Of a DNA stretch of 46,996 nucleotides, positions 1 to 8,543 are shown piece after piece (positions within the stretch are counted from its first letter, which is position 1; every line of letters begins with the position of its first letter). A model generated the notes under the pieces. It made no database searches, was not told the DNA's origin, and worked only from the letters and a program-made list of their open reading frames with translations. The DNA lies in assembly GCA_017651315.1 (NCBI GenBank), contig JAGCDE010000050.1, positions 1 to 46,996 on the forward strand, read 5' to 3'. A program made the translations under genes and the position numbers. The DNA comes from Bacteroidaceae bacterium. GTDB taxonomy: Bacteria; Bacteroidota; Bacteroidia; Bacteroidales; Bacteroidaceae.

Positions 1-568
1 AGCAGTCCGTCTGCACCCTGGATGTCACAATGTATCTGGTCGCTGTTGGATGTGACTGTCAGGTTCCTGAGTGTGCTATGTGACAATGGCTCTCCACTGG
101 CTGTTACGCATAATGAAGCAAAACGACGCTCGATATAGCAGGCGCAATCATCGTTGCTGTAAACCTTGCCTTTACCAAGTCCCAATCTCGTTGCAATGCT
201 CCAGACCAGATGACGGACATCGAAGCTGCTCAGTTTGGTCTTGTATCTCTTCCACTCAATTCAGGGCGGTAGTTGTGGTCCATCGCGAATCTCAACAGGT
301 CTGTGCAGAACTCGTCCATGTCTTCCTCGTAAATAAAAGGGGACATGATGTATTCTTCAAAGGCTCCGCTTTCAATTTCTTTCACGCTATCAGGCATTGA
401 TACTTTAGTCAGATCATTGCAACCAACAAAAGCAAATTCACAAATCCTTGTTGTTCCTTCCTTTATCACATACTCCACCAATGTGTCAGGGGCTTTAATC
501 CTGCTCGTTTTATCCATGCTGTATTGTACCCCAAACTCATCAATCCATAAACTTTCCGAGCTGTTCAT
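1..568 (-). pseudogene. Leucine-rich-repeat (BspA-type) protein, frameshifted and running off the window
   Basis: The intact 5' part (568 down to 230) encodes 112 residues. Around residues 32-70 it has the LRR_5/BspA pattern, with segments such as EGTTRICEFAFVGCNDLTKV and a following SVKEIESGAF. That frame stops at 230. A second open frame on the same strand, WKRYKTKLSSFDVRHL and onward, continues to the window edge without a stop. The two join near 258-263 if one A is restored to a short A run. I therefore read this as one gene with a one-base deletion: a real lesion, phase variation or a sequence error. It begins 2 bases after the DnaE-like stop at 570, so it is probably the last gene of the sigma/DnaE-like transcription unit. 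The function is unknown. LRR_5 proteins are often surface proteins, but no signal peptide is visible, so a cytoplasmic role is likelier. Confidence 0.6.
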
Positions 569-569
569 T

Positions 570-1493
570 TTATGATATTGCCTTAAAATAATACTTGGAT
601 AAAACTCTACTTACCGCATGCGCCTTCAGGAACGCCTTGGGGTTTGATGTCAGAACGGACCAGACAGTATCAAACTCTCTGTCTCCAAGACTTGTCTGGG
701 TGGCTGCATCCTGCAGTTCTGTTCTCAATGTATTTATCCGTTCCTTATCACCCCTTTGTATTATTAGTCTGGTGTCATTGGCGCTGGTACCATACACTCT
801 CAATGTGTACTTCAGTATATCAAACATCTGTTCCTGATAAGCCAGCAGCCCGCAGGTGGGTGCAAGTATCTCATCCAGCTTCTCTATACCAGTAGGTTTC
901 CAGACGGCTCCATTCTTCCGTTCTATGTAGGTCTTATACATATCCATCGTGTCCAGAAAGCTCAGGGCGTATTCGGCTATCTCATCGTCCAGGTTATCGG
1001 GTAGGGGCAGCGGGCTTACTCTCTCGCTGTTCAGGTTAGCCATAGGCTCAATATCGCCAATCACATATTTGCATCCGGTCTCAAAGTCAAGTATATCCGG
1101 ATTGTCTTTCAGCACCTTTGTTGCTTTTTCCTTGAACTCATCAAACCTGGCTTTCTCCACGTCAAACTGGAATCTGGGCGGCTCTTCGTTCACAAAACGG
1201 ACAGAGTGGAGTCCGTATTTTAACGGATCCACTTCGGTCAGCCCCAGACTGTAGCATACCACCGATGATGCCACAGCTCCGCGTGGCCACACATTAATAC
1301 CCAGTGATGTGGCAGTTTGTCTGAATATCCGGTAAGCCATCACGTAGAGGCCGGTATATCCCATCACATCAATGCACCTGTATTCAAATAACAATCTTAG
1401 CAAGGTTAGTTTATCCGGTTTCTCTCCGTAACGCTGCTCAAAGCCATGTGTTGCATGGCTTCTAAGCAATTCAATTGTTGCAGAATTATTCAT
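570..1493 (-). CDS. Short DnaE-like protein (polymerase III alpha palm fragment), probably inactive as polymerase
   Basis: About 307 residues with two blocks resembling bacterial DNA polymerase III alpha. The first (RCIDVMGYTGLYVMAYRIF, then GINVWPRGAVASSVVCYSLG, then LTEVDPLKYGL) matches the DnaE stretch containing GPGRGSxAGSLVAY and the DPLxxxLLFERF segment. The second (LLAYQEQMFDIL and later LKAHAVSRVLSKYYFKA) matches the YQEQVMxIA and NKSHxxAYxxxxYQTxxLKAHYP blocks. PHP, tail, OB and tau-binding domains are absent, and the distance between blocks is shortened. Where DnaE has PDFDxD, this protein reads FQFDVE, so by my alignment one catalytic Asp is Gln. I chose the ATG at 1493, which overlaps the sigma-fragment stop by 8 bases, the usual sign of translational coupling. 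A longer start at 1523 is possible. The role is unknown; a clamp- or replisome-binding mimic is one inference. Confidence 0.7.
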   Translation of the reverse strand: MNNSATIELLRSHATHGFEQRYGEKPDKLTLLRLLFEYRCIDVMGYTGLYVMAYRIFRQTATSLGINVWPRGAVASSVVCYSLGLTEVDPLKYGLHSVRFVNEEPPRFQFDVEKARFDEFKEKATKVLKDNPDILDFETGCKYVIGDIEPMANLNSERVSPLPLPDNLDDEIAEYALSFLDTMDMYKTYIERKNGAVWKPTGIEKLDEILAPTCGLLAYQEQMFDILKYTLRVYGTSANDTRLIIQRGDKERINTLRTELQDAATQTSLGDREFDTVWSVLTSNPKAFLKAHAVSRVLSKYYFKAIS

Positions 1494-1821
1494 GGCTATT
1501 CTGGCGCTGGATATTCGTTTCACGTGCTATACCCTTCAGGATATACTGGCGCACCCACCATACTGCATAAGCCATAAAGGTCACGCCTTTGCTGGTATCA
1601 AACTTCCGGGCAGCCCTTATCAGGCCCTCGTTGCCTTCTTCTATCAGCACTTCCATGCTCAGGCCCTGGTTCTTGTACTGCTCAGCCACCTTGGTTACAT
1701 ATTTGGCCTCCAGCTTCTCCAGCTCCTCCTCAGCCTTAATGTCGCCTTGCTTTACCAGGCTAATTAACTCCAGTTCCTTACTCTCTTCATTCTGTCTCTG
1801 ATTGTTGTTTTGTTCCATCAT
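1486..1821 (-). CDS. Sigma-70 region-2-only protein
   Basis: 111 residues. The N-terminus is acidic and Gln/Asn-rich. Residues from about 20 to 105 match region 2 of primary-type sigma factors: LSMEVLIEEGNEGLIRAARK, then FDTSKGVTFMAYAVWWVRQY. These correspond to the core-RNA-polymerase-binding and -10 recognition/melting helices (2.1-2.4). The protein ends 13 or so residues after region 2.4 in an in-frame stop, so regions 3 and 4 (needed for -35 contact) are missing. Full-length primary sigma factors in this phylum are around 285 residues. The downstream DnaE-like gene starts inside its last codons, so the short length looks fixed rather than a recent frameshift. It may redirect or titrate RNA polymerase, or activate a local promoter of unusual type; this is inference. 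An AT-rich motif lies 28 bases upstream of the ATG. Confidence 0.75.
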   Translation of the reverse strand: MMEQNNNQRQNEESKELELISLVKQGDIKAEEELEKLEAKYVTKVAEQYKNQGLSMEVLIEEGNEGLIRAARKFDTSKGVTFMAYAVWWVRQYILKGIARETNIQRQNSHE

Positions 1822-1880: not shown

Positions 1881-1923
1881 CGGAAAAAACCAACAATGCT
1901 GTGCAAAAACCTTGCACAGCATT
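1881..1923 (-). terminator. Rho-independent terminator after the WYL regulator gene
   Basis: A perfect 12-bp stem (1895-1906 with 1912-1923, arms AATGCTGTGCAA and TTGCACAGCATT) has a 5-base loop. Reading on the minus strand it is followed by GTTGG and a run of six T. It lies 10 bases after the WYL gene stop and separates that cassette from the sigma/DnaE-like unit. Confidence 0.85.
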
Positions 1924-1932
1924 GCATTTTCT

Positions 1933-2838
1933 TTAGTTCCTGTAGTATTTCAGACTCTTTTCTATGCGTTCCTTCATCTTATCTCTAAGCTCCTTTGGCT
2001 CCAGCACTTCGGCAAATTCACCCATGGACAAAAGTTGAGTAGTCAGCTCCGGAGTAAGGCACACTTTATACTTGAATTCGCTGTACTCGCCGTTCTTGGT
2101 AACAACCTCCTCCTGGCTCTTGTGGAGTGGCAGAGAGCGCACATAATCTACCTTATCACCATACACGCGTATGCGTACTGTCTGGGGCGTAAGGTCATCG
2201 CTCACGTATATGCCTACGGTGTTGGCGTAATACTCCTCGGCATCAAACTTCTTGGGCATCTTAAAGGTTACATCTGTCACGGCCAGATCAATCACTCTGT
2301 CCAAGGCAATGTTCCTGATTCCATTGGATTCATTCATAAAGCCCACCACATACCAGCGCCTGTTATACACCTTCATAGCGTAAGGCGCCAGATGATAGAT
2401 GTTATGGCCACCCTTAAACGGTTGGTAGTCTATCTCCAGCACCCGGTTCTGTTGCATGGCCTCAATAATGGTCTGCAGGTACTGGGTGCCGTGCGGAATC
2501 TCCTCAAACAGAATCCTGCCCTTCATGTTATGCCCAGCAATTATCATGTTTGACAGCGTGAAAGAGTTGTACAGCCACTGCTTTGTGCGGTCCTTCCTAA
2601 AGTTGTCCAGCTCGCCAATATAGTAGTGGTACCCGTCAGACGGGTTGCACTTTATCTCCACGCCAAACATCTCCTCAATGGCGCTCTTGTGCTGATGGAA
2701 CGTCCTCAGGGGCAGGGGATTGCCGTCACCCAGGCAACTCCTTTCCCACAGGCCGCTTATCTCCTCAAAAGTAAGCTTTTTCTTTTGCAGCAGTATGTCC
2801 AGCAGCCAGACGTATCGGTTTATTGTTTTACTTCCCAT
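1933..2838 (-). CDS. WYL-domain transcriptional regulator
   Basis: 301 residues. An N-terminal winged-helix region (about 1-65, with LTFEEISGLW and the recognition part PLPLRTFHQHKSAIEEMFG) is followed by a WYL core (about 118-190, including RVLEIDYQPF, HLAPYAMKVYNRRWYVVG and IALDRVIDL). A WCX-like C-terminal domain (about 205-300) ends in a basic helix. This is the standard architecture of WYL regulators, which bind DNA and sense nucleic acid or nucleotide ligands. Related proteins often control phage-defence loci (for example BrxR and CapW). Its start overlaps the metallophosphoesterase gene by 19 bases, and it is the last gene before the terminator at 1881-1923. It therefore probably autoregulates the cassette; the target site is not known. 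Confidence 0.85.
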   Translation of the reverse strand: MGSKTINRYVWLLDILLQKKKLTFEEISGLWERSCLGDGNPLPLRTFHQHKSAIEEMFGVEIKCNPSDGYHYYIGELDNFRKDRTKQWLYNSFTLSNMIIAGHNMKGRILFEEIPHGTQYLQTIIEAMQQNRVLEIDYQPFKGGHNIYHLAPYAMKVYNRRWYVVGFMNESNGIRNIALDRVIDLAVTDVTFKMPKKFDAEEYYANTVGIYVSDDLTPQTVRIRVYGDKVDYVRSLPLHKSQEEVVTKNGEYSEFKYKVCLTPELTTQLLSMGEFAEVLEPKELRDKMKERIEKSLKYYRN

Positions 2839-3497
2839 ATCATTTTTCCGTTACTGTGTATTCCGTATTCTTGCTCTTCCATTATCGCTCTGGCTAATCT
2901 CCCCATATTGTTGACGGGAAGTAAAAAACGCCTGGGATTATTTACCAGTTCCATCTTGTCATTCAGAAGTGCCGCATTTGAATAAATGGTTGCATCTATC
3001 TTCAGTATGCCGTAGCTTTCATGTGCATGACCAAACAGGTGATATCCGGGCTTAATTTCCTGAACACGGTTACGAATCTTGATGTTTCCCCAGTGTATTC
3101 CTGATGATTCATCTAGAATCATCGTAGGTGGCTCATGGGTAATCAGGTAATCAGTACCTTTCGGAATCAGCATCTCATCATGATTGTAGCCCAACCCAAA
3201 GAATTTAGCTCCACCTATTTCAACACTTCTGTCTTGCAGAAAATGTACATTTTCGGGTAAATCCTCAATACTCTCAGCATCCCAAAGGCACGTATCATGA
3301 TTGCCCGCCACGAATATCTTGTGTGCATTCGGCAGGTCAATAAACCAATTCAGAAAATCCAACACTTCCTGCTCCGTACCGCTGTTTGTTATATCACCGC
3401 TATGGATCAGAATATCGGCTTTGGGCAAAATGAGATTGGTCAATTGGTGGTGGAGCCCATGCGTATCAGATATGTGTAGGATTGTCATGCTAATCAT
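2820..3497 (-). CDS. Calcineurin-like metallophosphoesterase
   Basis: 225 residues with all the metal-binding motifs of the family in order: SDTHG (D11, H13), HSGDITN, GNHD, a TH motif (LITHEPP) and GHAHE. These coordinate a two-metal centre. Related small proteins cleave phosphodiesters or phosphomonoesters; the substrate cannot be told from sequence. There is no signal peptide, so it is cytoplasmic. The gene overlaps the upstream nuclease stop by 8 bases and the downstream WYL start by 19 bases, so all three are translationally linked. An alternative start 9 bases later (MTILHISDTHG) is equally plausible. In this setting it might act on nucleotides or nucleic acid ends produced by the two nuclease-like neighbours; that is inference. 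Confidence 0.9.
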   Translation of the reverse strand: MISMTILHISDTHGLHHQLTNLILPKADILIHSGDITNSGTEQEVLDFLNWFIDLPNAHKIFVAGNHDTCLWDAESIEDLPENVHFLQDRSVEIGGAKFFGLGYNHDEMLIPKGTDYLITHEPPTMILDESSGIHWGNIKIRNRVQEIKPGYHLFGHAHESYGILKIDATIYSNAALLNDKMELVNNPRRFLLPVNNMGRLARAIMEEQEYGIHSNGKMIWEVKQ

Positions 3498-4197
3498 TAT
3501 TTATTATTTGATTGTATTTGCCACTTTGATTGAATGTTATTGTTTTATTCAGGTATTTTTCAAATTTCTCATTCAAATCTTCCCATGAAACAAATTGAAT
3601 ATCAAATCCATAATCTTTTCCTGTTTTGATTTCAGAGTAATCACTTTTTGGAATGATTGCAACGTAATGGGCTGATTCGCATTCAGAAATTTGTTTCATA
3701 AATTCTTTCACAACTGGGTTATTTCCAGTTCTACGTTCAGCTTTCTTTTTCTGATCATAATATTTTATTAGGTCGGGAATTTTTAATTTATCCGTCTCAT
3801 TTTTTTTACACTTTGTCTCAAAGAAATAATACTTTTGTCTCAGTTGAAAAAACAAATTTGATGATTGACCGCTTTTATACTCTCTTTCTTTAACATATTC
3901 ATTATGTTCAGCATACTGTTTATGTATTTTATATTTTTTTCCACAACTAGCCTTTGCTTCAATAAATATCACCTCTTTTTCCTCTTTTTTATTATTTCTA
4001 TATTTAGCAATTATTACCATATCAGGATTTCCAAAATCTGATAATGAGAATTCTGAATATATTTCAAAATCGGTAAAATCCCCTTCTATGTTTGCTGTTT
4101 TTAAGAATTCTTTCATTGCTTCTTTGTCGTTACTCAAAGCAATTCCATGGAATAGAGCGTTCATAGCTCCTCTTTCAGAATAACCAAAAATTTCCAT
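3490..4197 (-). CDS. Putative PD-(D/E)XK nuclease of unknown specificity
   Basis: 235 residues and no close family recognised. The sequence NPDMVIIAKYR followed about 18 residues later by VIFIEAKAS fits the PD...(D/E)xK catalytic core, giving D59, E80 and K82 as candidate catalytic residues. The rest is Lys-rich with charged helices (residues 84-150). The gene is clearly more AT-rich than the genes around it, with frequent AAA/AAT/TTT codons, which suggests separate acquisition. It starts 4 bases after the MBL gene stop and overlaps the metallophosphoesterase start by 8 bases, so it sits in the middle of the operon. A restriction-like or toxin-like endonuclease is a reasonable inference; the call rests on the motif alone. 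Confidence 0.6.
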   Translation of the reverse strand: MEIFGYSERGAMNALFHGIALSNDKEAMKEFLKTANIEGDFTDFEIYSEFSLSDFGNPDMVIIAKYRNNKKEEKEVIFIEAKASCGKKYKIHKQYAEHNEYVKEREYKSGQSSNLFFQLRQKYYFFETKCKKNETDKLKIPDLIKYYDQKKKAERRTGNNPVVKEFMKQISECESAHYVAIIPKSDYSEIKTGKDYGFDIQFVSWEDLNEKFEKYLNKTITFNQSGKYNQIINND

Positions 4198-4201
4198 ATC
4201 T

Positions 4202-5497
4202 CTATATTTTTAATGTTTTATCAAATGTAGCTAATATCTTTTTATTAAACCGTTCACTTAATCCCAGCGTTTCCAAAGTTTGTCCTTCGTCTTTATGAAT
4301 GCCAACAATAGCCTCCTTAGGATTCACCGTCTCAATCACCTCCTTAATTGTCTGCCTGCTTGCATGCCCGGAAGTATAGATATCCACCACATTGTGGAAT
4401 GTCTCGCGGAACTTCTTGTATCCGGGGTTCTGCTCAACCTGTGCAGCATCCTTATAGTAGCCGTCCCATGTTGAATATATCAGCAGCGTTTCCTCTTCTG
4501 GCAATTGACTGCGTAGCTTATCAACCCTTTCAAGTTGCGATACACCAGCGCACATCACAAACCCACGCTTCAGGATAGGCTCAATAGGTTTCTTTTCATC
4601 ATAATAGCGGTGCTTAAAATAATAGCGGTGCTTAAAGTCAAATAGGTCACCCGGCCGCTTAGACTCTCTGTCGGTAAATATCCGCATGGTGGAATTTATG
4701 TATCCTGAGCATACACACAGAGGTTTGTGGGCCTCTTTCGCTGCCAGGTTGATGCTGGCTAACCGTTCAATATCTGTTGCTGATACCAACACAAATACAT
4801 ACTTAAACGCCTGCATCACATGAGCCATCTTTTCGGCTACCACGCTTTCATGAATGCACTCATCATCACGACTCAACATGGTACCCTCTGTTATCAGAAC
4901 ATCAATATCGGTTGCCTGCCACTTAAGCAACTTGAGTAATTTGCCTCCCATCCAGCCGTGCTGGCGGTAATCACCCATATGCCATATACGTTTCCCGTCA
5001 GCTTCAATCAGGAACATATAAGAGTCGTATATTGAGTGACAGTTATAGTAGGGGGTAATCCTGATGTCTCCAACAGAAAAGGCAACCGGCTTTGTGCTTC
5101 TTGGCCAGGTCTTGAACACTTTCAGCTTAGCATACTTGCGCTGATTGGTCTCTGGATCATTCCCAGCCAGTTTATCAGCCTCACAGAGCAAACGGTACTT
5201 CTCCAGAATGATTTCCTTCGCTCCTTCGCCAACCATCTGCTGTATGCCATCAGGGACATAATCAAACAGTCCAATATGGTCATCATGCACGTGAGTGTAA
5301 ATTACTGCAGTGTGCTCTTTCTGGTTATTCCGGAACAGTGTCTCCACCATATTCTTATCCTGTTCGGGGGTAGTTGCCTCGCCATTACCGGGCAGATTCT
5401 TTCCCAAATCAATAAACACACGTGATGTGGCGGTGCTTATCTCTGTTATGCATCCGCCAATCTGTTCCAATCCTCTGTGTATTATAATATTTACCAT
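4202..5497 (-). CDS. MBL-fold/beta-CASP ribonuclease J-like protein
   Basis: 431 residues. The metallo-beta-lactamase motif HVHDDH (H69, H71, D73, H74) is followed by the Asp motif HMGDYRQ. In the C-terminal third, SGHAS (about 376-380) and a distal His in VGIHKDEG match the beta-CASP motifs of ribonuclease J and CPSF-type nucleases. The segment between resembles a divergent beta-CASP domain. It is shorter than classical RNase J (about 550 residues) and lacks an obvious C-terminal dimerisation domain. It is the first gene of the four-gene cassette, with 133 bases of spacer upstream. An 18-bp in-frame tandem duplication (4601-4636) gives FKHRYYFKHRYY. RNA or DNA end-processing is the likely chemistry. 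Confidence 0.85.
   Translation of the reverse strand: MVNIIIHRGLEQIGGCITEISTATSRVFIDLGKNLPGNGEATTPEQDKNMVETLFRNNQKEHTAVIYTHVHDDHIGLFDYVPDGIQQMVGEGAKEIILEKYRLLCEADKLAGNDPETNQRKYAKLKVFKTWPRSTKPVAFSVGDIRITPYYNCHSIYDSYMFLIEADGKRIWHMGDYRQHGWMGGKLLKLLKWQATDIDVLITEGTMLSRDDECIHESVVAEKMAHVMQAFKYVFVLVSATDIERLASINLAAKEAHKPLCVCSGYINSTMRIFTDRESKRPGDLFDFKHRYYFKHRYYDEKKPIEPILKRGFVMCAGVSQLERVDKLRSQLPEEETLLIYSTWDGYYKDAAQVEQNPGYKKFRETFHNVVDIYTSGHASRQTIKEVIETVNPKEAIVGIHKDEGQTLETLGLSERFNKKILATFDKTLKI
4601..4636. repeat. 18-bp perfect tandem duplication inside the MBL gene
   Basis: ATAATAGCGGTGCTTAAA occurs twice in a row (4601-4618 and 4619-4636). It is in frame and duplicates the residues FKHRYY in the coding strand. 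It looks like a recent slippage event. Confidence 0.95.
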
Positions 5498-5630: not shown

Positions 5631-6107
5631 TTAACACCGGAAGAATTCCAGTATTATGCCGTTAAGTTTCAGAATCGGGAGGTTGAAACGCATCATGGCC
5701 TTACCGTACACCACCTCGGCCAGCTGCACCAGGCGGTTGCGGTTCTCGTTGTCAATCGTCACGCCCACGTTCAGAGGCAGGTTGATGTCCGGGAAGGGGT
5801 ATTCCGGCAGGCCCTCATCCGGGAGCGGATTCGTAGCCGTCAGCCCCAGGCAGTAGGCCACCATGCTGTTTTCCAGTCCGCGATGTGCGTTGCCAATAGC
5901 GGCTCCCAGGGTAGTGCGGGCCTCATCCACAATGTTCCACATTTCCAGAAAGCCATCCTCCAGATGCTGCAGGCGGATCCAGTCCATCTCGCGCTCCCAG
6001 CGTTCACGTACCAGCGCATTCATTTCAGGATATACACTCTTCTGGCACTCCTTCACTCTAGCCTCAAAGGCCCCCATTTTCAGCAATTCTTCCTTCTTTA
6101 ATATCAT
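5631..6107 (-). CDS. Small DnaE-like fragment protein
   Basis: 158 residues. After a helical N-terminus (1-65), the segment LGAAIGNAHRGLENSMVAYC followed by LGLTATNPLP resembles the DnaE GPGRGSxAGSLVAYxLxITxxDPL block. Next comes PFPDINLPLN and IDNENRNRLVQLAEVVYGKA, resembling PDFDxDF followed by the RdxVIeyvxekYG helix. By this alignment the first catalytic Asp is kept and the second is Asn. PHP, thumb, fingers and C-terminal modules are all absent. It is a paralogue, in architecture, of the protein at 570-1493. It is separated from the MBL gene by 133 bases and may be the promoter-proximal gene of the same strand. A -7-like box lies about 22 bases upstream. Function unknown; polymerase activity is very unlikely at this length. 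Confidence 0.6.
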   Translation of the reverse strand: MILKKEELLKMGAFEARVKECQKSVYPEMNALVRERWEREMDWIRLQHLEDGFLEMWNIVDEARTTLGAAIGNAHRGLENSMVAYCLGLTATNPLPDEGLPEYPFPDINLPLNVGVTIDNENRNRLVQLAEVVYGKAMMRFNLPILKLNGIILEFFRC

Positions 6108-6137: not shown

Positions 6138-6245
6138 TGGGTGCAGTGTGCAAAATCATTGCATAGGTAATCTTTTTTTTCTGTTTTTTCAAAATATTTC
6201 TTCATCTGCATTCTTTTTTGCACACCTATAAATGACATTTGCCCC

Positions 6246-6284: not shown

Positions 6285-6590
6285 ATGGAATTAAAAGAAG
6301 AAACTGCTTATCTGGAGGCATTAGAAGCTTGCCGCAAATACGCATTGCTTCAATCCAATGCCGTTAATGCCTGGATTGATTCAGGAGTCAGCGTGGAGAC
6401 ATTGGTTAGTGTTATAAACACAAGCTACTCTACAGACTATGCAACAACCCGTTTATCAGAGATGACCGGAATAGCAGAGCCGCTTGTTAAGGAAATCGTC
6501 CGTCTTCCATTGGATGAATTATCCCCTGAATACTTTCAGAACCGTCTGGACTATTACAGTCAGGCTGCTGAGGTTCTCGAGATGCTGTAA
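6285..6590 (+). CDS. Unrecognised small acidic helical protein
   Basis: 101 residues, predicted mostly helical and acidic, without signal peptide, membrane segment, cysteines or a motif I recognise. It starts MELKEETAYLEALEACRKYA and ends SQAAEVLEML. It is the only plus-strand gene of the island, divergent from the small DnaE-like gene, and its upstream region carries the shared AT-rich motif. The start ATG is preceded by GCAAGCAAT, with no strong Shine-Dalgarno, as is common in this phylum. Its size and position suggest a regulator or accessory factor of the island, but nothing in the sequence fixes a function. Confidence 0.6.
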   Translation: MELKEETAYLEALEACRKYALLQSNAVNAWIDSGVSVETLVSVINTSYSTDYATTRLSEMTGIAEPLVKEIVRLPLDELSPEYFQNRLDYYSQAAEVLEML

Positions 6591-7136: not shown

Positions 7137-8543
7137 TTACTTCTTGAAGTCGCGGACTGTGTAGTAAACGGGCTTGCGCTTGTACTCGCGGTCAAACAAC
7201 AGCGGGAAGTTGTTGGCGCCAAGCCATGAGTCACGGTCGCCAAGGTTCCAGAATGTTACGCAAGAGAAGTTCTTCTTGTACTTACGCAGAATCTTGAACA
7301 GCTGGTCATACTTCTCCTGCTGCATCTGGGCGATAGTATCGGAGAGGACCTGACCTTCGCCGCGGTTGAACTGAAGCTGACCGCCGGCCTCATGATTGAT
7401 ACGGATATCGAACTCGGTGATCTGGATGTCGTCAACCAGCTCAAGGTACATCTGGATGGCCTTCTCGAAGTCCTCGAGGGTGGGGTTGTCATAGATGTTG
7501 TAGTGACCCTGCATACCGATACCGGTGATAGGAGCACCCTCAGACTGCAGTTTCTTGACCATGTTGTAGATATAGGTCCTCTTTGAAGGAGTCCATGCGC
7601 TGTAGTCGTTGTAGAACAGGCCGGCATTCGGATCAGCCTCATGAGCGAACTCGAAGGCTTTCTTGATGAACTCGTCACCGCAAAGCTGATAGGCGGTTGA
7701 CTGACGGAACGACTGCTCGTAGGGTGCATTCGGGTTGTTGGCATCGCTCATGGCCTCATTCACGACATCCCAGCAATAGACCACGTCCTTGTAACGGTTG
7801 ATTACAGTATGGATGTGGGCGCGGAGTGAATCATAGAACTCCTCCTTAGTGGCTTTAGCATACTTGGGAACCCTGGTCATCTGGGGAGCTGCTGCCTGAC
7901 CCTGCTGGCCCTGCGGACGCTGGCCCTGAGGCATCTGGCCGAAACCGCCGAAACCGCCCTGAGGCATCTGGCCCGGCTGGCCCTGCGGACGCTGGCCCTG
8001 TCCCTGACGCTGACCCTGTCCCTGACGCTGACCCTGGGGAGCTCCCTGCGGGGCACCCTGCGGACGCTGGCCCTGAGGCATCTGACCGAAACCGCCGCCT
8101 CCAAAGCCGCCGAAGCCGCCGCGTACGGGCTGTTCAACCCAGATGGTGTCACCATTCTCGTCACGTTCAACGACCTGGTTGCCGTTCTCGTCATACTTGT
8201 TGAACATCCAGTTTGCGAACTGGCTGTGCCATACGAGGCAGTGGCCACGCATCTTGATGCCGTTCTTGCGGCAGAAGTCAGCAATGGCATCGGCCTGGGC
8301 AAAATTCCATACACCGGGCTGGGGGTGAATCTCACCTGGCTTCATGCAGTTCTCAGCGGTAATGCTGTTGAATTCCTTAAGGATGATTGATGCCTGAAGC
8401 GAGTCAGTGACGTTACGCGGGGTAACGGCAACACCAATCTTGAAATAGTTCTTGTAGGCATCCTTCAGACCCGGGTCTTTGGGGCCACATGCGCTCACCA
8501 GTACGATTGACGCAATGAGTGCGATTGTCGAAAGCTTTTTCAT
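7137..8543 (-). CDS. GH10 endo-beta-1,4-xylanase, lipoprotein
   Basis: 468 residues. A lipoprotein signal peptide ends in the lipobox VSAC (Cys19), so the enzyme is anchored to a membrane and probably faces outward. The GH10 barrel follows: FNSITAENCMKPGEIHPQPG, HCLVWHSQ (101-108), acid/base Glu263 in WDVVNEA and nucleophile Glu377 in ITEFDI, then VTFWNLGDRDSW near the end. Family members cut internal beta-1,4 links in xylan. Between the HCLVWHSQ strand and the WDVVNEA strand there is an 80-residue insertion (142-221) almost entirely of Gly, Gln, Pro, Arg and Phe. GH10 enzymes in this phylum can carry carbohydrate-binding insertions in this part of the barrel, but this one is low-complexity. 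A TAnnTTTG promoter lies about 60 bases upstream and a terminator follows, so it is monocistronic. Confidence 0.95.
   Translation of the reverse strand: MKKLSTIALIASIVLVSACGPKDPGLKDAYKNYFKIGVAVTPRNVTDSLQASIILKEFNSITAENCMKPGEIHPQPGVWNFAQADAIADFCRKNGIKMRGHCLVWHSQFANWMFNKYDENGNQVVERDENGDTIWVEQPVRGGFGGFGGGGFGQMPQGQRPQGAPQGAPQGQRQGQGQRQGQGQRPQGQPGQMPQGGFGGFGQMPQGQRPQGQQGQAAAPQMTRVPKYAKATKEEFYDSLRAHIHTVINRYKDVVYCWDVVNEAMSDANNPNAPYEQSFRQSTAYQLCGDEFIKKAFEFAHEADPNAGLFYNDYSAWTPSKRTYIYNMVKKLQSEGAPITGIGMQGHYNIYDNPTLEDFEKAIQMYLELVDDIQITEFDIRINHEAGGQLQFNRGEGQVLSDTIAQMQQEKYDQLFKILRKYKKNFSCVTFWNLGDRDSWLGANNFPLLFDREYKRKPVYYTVRDFKK
7909..8096. repeat. Repeats encoding the Gly/Gln/Pro-rich xylanase insertion
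   Basis: A 41-bp unit at 7909-7949 recurs at 8056-8096 with one mismatch. Shorter CCCTG(A/C)CGCTG-type units fill the space between. The region codes for GFGQMPQGQRPQG-type repeats. Confidence 0.85.

What the first reader, a model, noticed from the sequence alone, without database searches (positions are those of the whole stretch)
1933..5497. WYL-metallophosphoesterase-PD-(D/E)XK-MBL cassette as candidate defence operon
Four genes overlap or abut (8 and 19 base overlaps, a 4-base gap) and end in one terminator. Three encode nucleic-acid or phosphoester hydrolases and one a WYL regulator. Known: WYL regulators commonly control anti-phage loci. The combination does not match any defence system I can name.
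Basis: partly seen in the sequence, partly recalled or inferred. Interest (0 to 1): 0.85.

Follow-up and report, generated by a model that had tools for sequence, protein, structure and literature searches.

The report
WYL-operator nuclease locus with polymerase mimics
A rumen bacterium carries a locus, probably an immune device, in which one regulator's likely DNA site precedes swappable nucleic-acid-cutting enzymes and also shortened, catalytically broken copies of the cell's own polymerase parts; the searches made here found no published system that combines these.

Summary
The four genes are real, at the stated coordinates, in one tight operon, but they are part of something larger. Of 62 full-length MBL relatives examined, 53 have a PD-(D/E)XK-like gene within three genes, also on plasmids of Alphaproteobacteria and Butyrivibrio. 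That gene is exchanged between near-identical MBLs; one pair shows a clean swap ending at the MBL start codon. Recurrent companions are a stand-alone, catalytically dead DnaE-palm paralogue (dnaEb) and a truncated sigma-70 (sig2). Of 31 stand-alone dnaEb genes found in 301 family genomes, 30 lie within 6 kb of at least one WYL, nuclease, sig2, MBL or MPE gene. A CapW-like palindrome, TGCAAN5TTGCA, sits before dnaEb and before sig2 in the window, and before WYL, dnaEb or sig2 in relatives. It tracks the WYL DNA-binding part (13 of 15 versus 3 of 23). So the hairpin read as a terminator is probably an operator. Best reading: a WYL-controlled, modular nuclease conflict system with polymerase mimics. 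Defence is inferred; no phage or structure test was possible.

The parts
1933..2838 (-). WYL regulator (WYL and WCX domains found; N-terminal DNA-binding part inferred), 301 aa
   Evidence: WYL 4.6e-14, WCX 5.9e-12; dN/dS 0.04-0.10 where not saturated
2820..3497 (-). MPPED2-like metallophosphoesterase, PADLOC candidate family PDC-S10
   Evidence: 18 of 60 relatives' places within 4 kb of MBL
3490..4197 (-). PD-(D/E)XK-like protein (PDX), fills an exchangeable nuclease position
   Evidence: E..(P/A)D..EAK conserved in relatives; found in 5 of 301 family genomes, own included; beside MBL in G250 and, as two ORFs, in G181
4202..5497 (-). MBL beta-CASP (RNase J-like) hydrolase with intact motifs
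   Evidence: HxHxDH, H154, D176, E204, SGH378, H401 (window protein numbering) invariant in 8 rows
5631..6107 (-). dnaEb: stand-alone DnaE-palm paralogue without the catalytic Asp motif
   Evidence: 31 strong places in 301 genomes; Asp motif lost
1486..1821 (-). sig2: sigma-70 region 2 only, truncated RpoD-like paralogue
   Evidence: residues 15-107 align to 39-131 of a full-length RpoD-like paralogue
570..1523 (-). dnaEa: DnaE-like palm plus finger without the stretch between, two catalytic Asp changed
   Evidence: dN/dS 0.18-0.37
1893..1925 (-). hairpin with palindrome core 1902-1916, candidate WYL operator 88 nt before sig2
6149..6163 (.). palindrome TGCAAAATCATTGCA, candidate WYL operator between divergent dnaEb (49 nt) and the 6285 gene (129 nt)
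6285..6590 (+). 101-aa protein of unknown family, divergent from dnaEb; found in 5 of 37 genus genomes, the same five that hold close dnaEb relatives, each with MBL

Best explanation
A WYL-repressed, modular conflict (probably anti-phage or anti-mobile-element) locus. Seen in the sequence: a WYL-WCX protein like CapW; matching palindromes before the dnaEb/nuclease transcription unit and before sig2-dnaEa; an exchangeable PD-(D/E)XK-like gene; an RNase J-like MBL with intact motifs; an MPPED-like phosphoesterase; and truncated paralogues of host RpoD and DnaE under purifying selection with DnaE catalytic aspartates lost. Inferred: WYL holds both units off and releases them on an infection- or damage-derived ligand; the MBL and PD-(D/E)XK proteins then cut nucleic acid and the phosphoesterase trims nucleotides or ends; the sigma and DnaE mimics act at the polymerases, most likely as bait for phage proteins that seize host RNA polymerase or replisome (about 0.35 given the rest), otherwise as subunit poisons (0.3) or tethers for the nuclease (0.2).
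For: Operon and overlaps. PD-(D/E)XK-like gene immediately beside 47 of 62 full-length MBL genes and within three genes of 53 of 62. Partner exchange: at least 16 changes of partner group among the 50 rows with a labelled partner on the MBL tree, and a clean PD6/PD12 swap between two loci 97.8% identical across MBL and MPE. MBL and MPE co-occur in 22 genomes (51 and 53 of 301, p 1.7e-6), 18 of 60 MPE places within 4 kb of MBL. 30 of 31 dnaEb places lie near a module gene; stretches more than 6 kb from an anchor (209 kb) hold 1 WYL, 0 PD, 0 sig2 against 38, 76 and 24 in 803 kb nearby. Palindrome: 30 exact hits in 994 kb of loci against 0.6 in mononucleotide shuffles; 26 of the 30 lie within 260 nt before, or just over, the start of a dnaEb, WYL, sig2 or 6285-type gene, and presence tracks the WYL DNA-binding part. 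dN/dS 0.04-0.37 in unsaturated pairs. Catalytic Asp lost in dnaEb and dnaEa. Some sampled neighbours are defence genes: 3 AbiEii, 2 GmrSD, 1 HpaII, 1 ResIII among 63. CapW precedent: 19-24-bp palindromes (PMC9122588 passages).
Against: No phage data. Defence families are few among the 63 sampled neighbours as far as the capped lists show (25 of 76 and 25 of 88 families), and the families shown for the rest of this window (25 of 61) are mostly housekeeping, Bat-type or TPR proteins. No MBL or PDX match in the phage collection. PD labels were built from neighbours of MBL, so the PD counts partly reflect that choice. Loci share ancestry, so the Fisher and hypergeometric values overstate independence. 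Where the WYL DNA-binding part is under 60% identical to the window's, 20 of 23 lack this palindrome, including L096 with WYL-PDX-MBL. Four of the 30 palindromes precede none of these genes.
Confidence: 0.5

Rival explanations
1. Nucleic-acid repair or stress operon: the beta-CASP MBL and phosphoesterase work like the ligase-associated Exo/PdeM pair (recalled), and the DnaE and RpoD paralogues are alternative replication and transcription subunits induced by WYL (as PafBC induces repair genes, recalled).
For: MBL beta-CASP plus calcineurin-like enzyme; weak PdeM match (TIGR04123, E 0.061); WYL protein hits PafBC in the PDB weakly (E 0.0013); full-length RpoD paralogues occur in the sig2 slot, the L036 copy being 79-80% identical to an RpoD-like copy elsewhere in each of four genomes.
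Against: dnaEb and dnaEa have lost catalytic Asp; no ligase or Lhr among the 9 proteins scanned; the nuclease partner is swapped between near-identical loci and distribution is patchy (51 of 301), unlike housekeeping repair.
Confidence: 0.2
2. Cargo and debris of mobile elements: DnaE, DnaB and sigma pieces are remnants of plasmid or phage replication modules that happen to accumulate with nuclease genes at the same insertion places.
For: Homologues of MBL on plasmids, one near a Tn3 transposase; DnaX and a DnaE piece beside WYL-PD-MBL on a Butyrivibrio plasmid; dnaEa matches a phage polymerase family (PHROG 405, 5.4e-27).
Against: Purifying selection on dnaEb, dnaEa and sig2; recurrent palindrome at similar spacing, 84-96 nt before sig2 in 9 of 10 loci; 30 of 31 dnaEb near a module gene.
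Confidence: 0.15
3. WYL-regulated toxin/dormancy locus in which sig2 and dnaEb poison RNA polymerase and replisome as dominant-negative subunits, with nucleases as further toxins.
For: sig2 is region 2 alone in the window and in the compact loci L137, L138, L140, L141, L144; dnaEb lacks the catalytic motif.
Against: Full-length RpoD-like copies fill the same slot in G161, G147 and G692, which would be active rather than poisonous.
Confidence: 0.15

Closest known systems
ARG-centred systems with WYL or Nudix regulator, phosphatase and rapidly evolving REase (Iyer et al. 2022, PMC9503650; section 3.8 read whole)
   Same: WYL regulator, calcineurin-like phosphatase as an option, exchangeable REase; two proteins of relatives here match Pfam REase-ARP above its cut-off (9.6e-34, 3.3e-38) and one just below it (1.1e-5). 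That PF22558 is the REase of that paper is inferred from its name.
   Different: No ADP-ribosylglycohydrolase among the 9 proteins scanned here; has MBL beta-CASP, dead DnaE and truncated sigma.
CapW/BrxR WYL repressors (PMC9122588; abstract and passages seen)
   Same: WYL-WCX protein; palindrome of about 19 bp near promoters, also between divergent genes.
   Different: Different effector set; binding not tested.
PADLOC PDC-S10 (single-gene candidate)
   Same: MPE matches over residues 3-191, E 1.3e-65.
   Different: PDCs are described as mostly unvalidated (PMC12988326 passages); PDC-S10 by name had no occurrence in the papers listed, so its usual partners are unknown to me.
RNase J / EF2904-type MBL beta-CASP proteins
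   Same: Weak PDB matches 7pcr, 8cgl, 2az4; TIGR00649 E 4.4e-14.
   Different: 51.8 bits against a cut-off of 400; not an RNase J orthologue.
MZA system (MzaA sigma factor; PMC9523054, one passage seen)
   Same: A sigma-70-like protein in a defence operon; sig2 matches MzaA (5.4e-17; 68.4 of 800 bits), as it does many sigma factors.
   Different: Only sigma region 2 here; no other Mza component matched.
DefensePredictor DS-8/DS-9 metallophosphatases (PMC13092281, passages seen)
   Same: Metallophosphatases shown to be needed for defence.
   Different: Different subfamily; the DS8 model matches MPE only at E 0.014.

Membership tests
ARG-centred system (Iyer 2022) | ADP-ribosylglycohydrolase domain | tested here: not met
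   None in the 9 proteins of the operon and its sides; one occurs among 63 sampled neighbours in relatives, locus not identified
ARG-centred system (Iyer 2022) | WYL or Nudix regulator | tested here: met
ARG-centred system (Iyer 2022) | REase-ARP domain | tested here: not met
   PDX does not match PF22558; of ten relatives' proteins two match above cut-off and one just below
CapW/BrxR WYL repressor | WYL and WCX domains | tested here: met
   N-terminal wHTH inferred only
CapW/BrxR WYL repressor | binds a palindrome of about 20 bp in the promoter | tested here: inconclusive
   palindrome found and tracks the DNA-binding part; binding not tested
CapW/BrxR WYL repressor | represses and is relieved on infection | not testable with these tools
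   needs a reporter assay
PDC-S10 | match to the PADLOC profile | tested here: met
   218.8 bits
RNase J | NCBIfam TIGR00649 score at cut-off | tested here: not met
   51.8 of 400 bits
PD-(D/E)XK nuclease (PDX) | D...ExK core | tested here: met
   PD/AD and EAK present in the window protein and the relatives that span that part
PD-(D/E)XK nuclease (PDX) | fold | not testable with these tools
MZA | MzaBCDE components | tested here: not met
   none; sig2 alone matches MzaA through its sigma domain
Lamassu | LmuA with SMC-like LmuB | tested here: not met
   LmuA E 0.0031 only, no LmuB hit among the 9 proteins
Ligase-associated Exo/PdeM | PdeM profile cut-off and ligase neighbour | tested here: not met
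   12.7 of 150 bits; no ligase among the 9 proteins

The most novel reading that the evidence does not exclude
An immune module built on mimicry of the host's central machines: a truncated RpoD and a dead DnaE, kept under selection and co-regulated with swappable nucleases by one WYL operator, serve as baits for phage proteins that attack RNA polymerase and the replisome and thereby trigger or aim the nuclease. This would be a bacterial integrated-decoy system with exchangeable effectors.
Probability: 0.22. Interest if true: 0.92.

Novelty: new variant of a known kind. Interest (0 to 1): 0.68.

Why it matters
If the polymerase mimics are baits or tethers, they show a way for bacteria to sense takeover of transcription and replication, and the slot beside MBL is a natural library of interchangeable nucleases. 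The palindrome gives a direct handle: the regulon can be found by a short motif and tested with one repressor. It may also explain why single-gene catalogues list only parts of the system (for example PDC-S10).

Tried and rejected
Rejected: (1) the four genes as a fixed unit: MBL, a labelled PD-type partner, MPE and WYL together occur in 6 of 62 full-length MBL rows, window included (labels), and 1 more (L046) by the operon runs. (2) Lamassu, MZA, RNase J orthologue and PdeM by profile scores. (3) A phage-borne origin: no relatives of MBL or PDX in the phage collection (MPE not searched there) and none of MBL, MPE or PDX in viral contigs (single-protein queries that find close relatives only). 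(4) Pure terminator reading of 1893-1925.

Led nowhere: Pfam on one member each of the c6, c4, c10, c12 and c20 partner families gave no match better than E 0.059; a strict Bacteroides promoter pattern (recalled) is absent at the locus, its three matches lying elsewhere in the window; a motif search for an ADP-ribosylglycohydrolase among the sampled neighbours printed nothing; literature searches did not show a description of the combination (open-licence library only, with no paper, off-topic).

Dropped or unexamined rows: of 60 MBL places not all were fetched; of 12 plasmid records nine were opened (of the other three, one has the same organism and match figures as an opened one). Seven MBL fragments are in the 69 rows but outside the 62. 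Of 180 neighbour proteins listed, 63 were scanned. ORFs were called by a simple longest-first rule, which miscalled dnaEb in L037 and L127. The other 8 palindromes of the own genome were only scanned for these families in about 1.7-3 kb each. In one search, two of the three low-identity WYL genes with a palindrome nearby are second WYL genes in L036 and L038.
Full report
Observation. Pfam gives WYL and WCX for the first, Metallophos for the second, an MBL fold for the fourth, and nothing significant for the third (Herpes_UL24 at 0.025). PADLOC gives PDC-S10 for the phosphoesterase at 1.3e-65 and WYL models for the regulator; MBL and PDX match only weakly. The phosphoesterase is closest in the PDB to MPPED2; the MBL to RNase J and EF2904.

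MBL and its partner. MBL relatives occur in 51 of 301 genomes of the family; in 8 of 395 drawn from the phylum at a stricter cut-off, of which two are the own genome and another of the same family and two are short matches inside 537-aa frames; and on 12 plasmid records, including Rhizobium, Sphingomonas, Cereibacter, Butyrivibrio and Prevotella. In the own genus 25 of 37 genomes matched the MBL profile, but most of these are a small, different MBL protein with frames of about 270 aa at 41-48 bits; 8 hold this family, one of them in pieces. The active-site residues are invariant in eight rows from several phyla. In 62 full-length copies examined, a PD-(D/E)XK-like gene is an immediate neighbour in 47 and within three genes in 53; of the nine without, six have at most one gene called between MBL and the contig end upstream. 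Of the nine plasmid loci opened, seven have such a gene within three genes and two (L092, L118) do not. These partners fall into several families: PD4, PD6, PD20 and the alphaproteobacterial one are linked by profile comparison at 95-99% probability; PD26 and c14 are linked at 96.9%, and a PD26 member matches Pfam REase-ARP at 1.1e-5, just below its cut-off; PD13 and the 240-aa protein of L036 are linked at 97.3%, and a PD13 member matches DUF6946; PD10, PD12, the Butyrivibrio family and PDX stay apart. The motif D...ExK is visible in the alignments of PD6, PD4, PD20/PD10 and PD12, and E..(P/A)D..EAK in PDX relatives.

Exchange. On the MBL tree (quick method, 29 of 58 inner branches starred) the partner group changes at least 16 times among the 50 rows with a labelled partner. 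The window MBL is 96% and 94% identical to those of L036 and L037, yet has PDX downstream where they have PD6 upstream and other nuclease-like genes downstream. L101 and L102 are 97.8% identical in DNA across MPE and MBL up to the MBL start codon, carry unrelated PD6 and PD12 genes, and become similar again (91.7%) beyond them. DNA similarity between the window and L036, L037 and L038 falls into blocks that end close to gene borders: the 6285 gene with dnaEb, MBL (except its last 60-120 nt), WYL, and in L036 and L037 dnaEa; L038 also shares MPE.

The phosphoesterase. It occurs in 53 of 301 genomes, in 22 together with MBL (p 1.7e-6), and 18 of 60 places lie within 4 kb of MBL, 15 of the 24 best. 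It is optional: next to PDX in the window, not called in L036 and L037.

Polymerase mimics. Upstream of MBL lies dnaEb (158 aa); downstream of WYL lie sig2 (111 aa) and dnaEa (317 aa). In the genus, close dnaEb relatives (78-100% identical) occur in 5 of 37 genomes, the same five that hold the 6285 gene, each beside MBL; elsewhere mostly frames of housekeeping size match at 29-36% identity, plus an 816-aa frame of the own genome at 27%. In the family, 31 stand-alone dnaEb places stand out (frames 146-217 aa, at least 145 bits, against at most 66 bits for the rest). Seventeen have MBL within 6 kb; the others include six compact loci in which dnaEb faces WYL, an exchangeable nuclease and sig2 of 101-148 aa (L137, L138, L140, L141, L142, L144). 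Overall 30 of 31 lie within 6 kb of at least one module gene: WYL 25, PD-type 26, sig2 17, MBL 17, MPE 8; the exception, L136, lies at a contig end. Sequence more than 6 kb from an anchor (209 kb) holds 1 WYL, 0 PD and 0 sig2. In the alignment, all 29 dnaEb sequences lack the aspartates matching host D468 and D472 and 28 of 29 lack D470; all 12 dnaEa lack D468 and D470, while 8 keep D472 (the alignment is gapped just before this motif, and that these aspartates are catalytic is recalled). The sig2 slot holds full-length RpoD-like copies in G161, G147 and G692, each of which has a second RpoD-like copy elsewhere; the G161 operon copy is 79-80% identical to those second copies and to the one of the own genome. 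Other loci hold versions lacking the middle, or region 2 alone, as in the window. These genes are under purifying selection in unsaturated comparisons: dnaEb 0.12-0.18, dnaEa 0.18-0.37, sig2 0.06-0.22, MBL 0.07-0.08, WYL 0.04-0.10.

Operator. Exact TGCAAN5TTGCA occurs twice in the window, at 1902-1916 and 6149-6163 (with one mismatch allowed, three matches against 2.05 expected, so the count alone is not striking and the case rests on position and recurrence). In 994 kb of loci there are 30 exact hits against 0.6 in mononucleotide shuffles (a weaker control than dinucleotide shuffles). Twenty-six of the 30 lie before, or just over, the start of a sig2, WYL, dnaEb or 6285-type gene: 68-96 nt before sig2 (84-96 in 9 of 10), 49-60 nt before WYL, and before dnaEb 38-50 nt in the window, L036, L038 and L136 (which has a second hit over the start) but 138-200 nt in the loci where dnaEb faces WYL. 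Where the first 110 residues of WYL are at least 60% identical to the window's, 13 of 15 genes have a hit within 5 kb; below that 3 of 23 do (Fisher 8.5e-6, without correction for relatedness). The own genome has 10 sites against 1 for the reversed pattern; the other 8 show none of these families nearby. CapW binds palindromes of 19-24 bp near promoters and can repress both ways (PMC9122588, passages). So the hairpin read as a terminator is probably the operator of sig2-dnaEa, perhaps with terminator function in the window, where its arms are the longest of the 30.

What it probably does. WYL regulators, exchangeable REases and calcineurin-like phosphatases are known together in predicted conflict systems (PMC9503650 section 3.8), and metallophosphatases have been shown necessary in two defence systems (PMC13092281 passages). 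By that analogy this is a conflict locus held off by WYL. The new element is the co-regulated DnaE without its catalytic motif and the truncated sigma. Full RpoD copies in the same slot argue against simple poisoning and fit bait or resistant replacement; dead DnaE argues against replacement; bait fits both, but nothing here tests it.

Limits. No structure could be predicted. Defence families are few among the neighbours as far as capped lists show (63 of 180 proteins listed). Functions are inferred throughout. An order-level search found dnaEb in one genome outside the family among 277 genomes, at a contig end, so the mimic-bearing form may be nearly confined to this family, while the MBL pair is wider.

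Noticed in passing
L131 9463-14825 (own genome, contig C32): An operon with a DnaE-like protein of 814 aa with intact PDIDID motif, a P-loop protein of 229 aa that looks DnaB-like by eye, and an AAA ATPase of the c9 family that also recurs near MBL loci, set beside housekeeping-like genes.
   Followed up: partly
L111 6918-7583, L114 6600-7265: A DnaB C-terminal-domain protein of 221 aa (Pfam 2.5e-67 for L111) next to MPE, in the same run of genes as dnaEb; another replisome piece.
   Followed up: partly
L040 6006-6569, L034 6505-7068: A 187-aa protein between sig2 and dnaEa, with a weak PHP-domain match (0.0046, L040).
   Followed up: no
L090 7492-10253 (Butyrivibrio plasmid pCY186): A DnaX gene and a 480-aa DnaE piece downstream of WYL, PD-type gene and MBL.
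   Followed up: partly
L091 4516-4992, L093 6256-6630, L094 4558-4953, L118 4561-5004: A small protein with a shared pattern (seen by eye) beside MBL on alphaproteobacterial plasmids.
   Followed up: no
L126 12028-12549; L117 6291-7469: PLD-type proteins near the module (Pfam for L126; by eye for L117).
   Followed up: no
window 7137-8543: GH10 xylanase interrupted by a Gly/Gln/Pro-rich low-complexity stretch.
   Followed up: no
window 230-568: Short BspA-type leucine-rich-repeat ORF directly after dnaEa.
   Followed up: no
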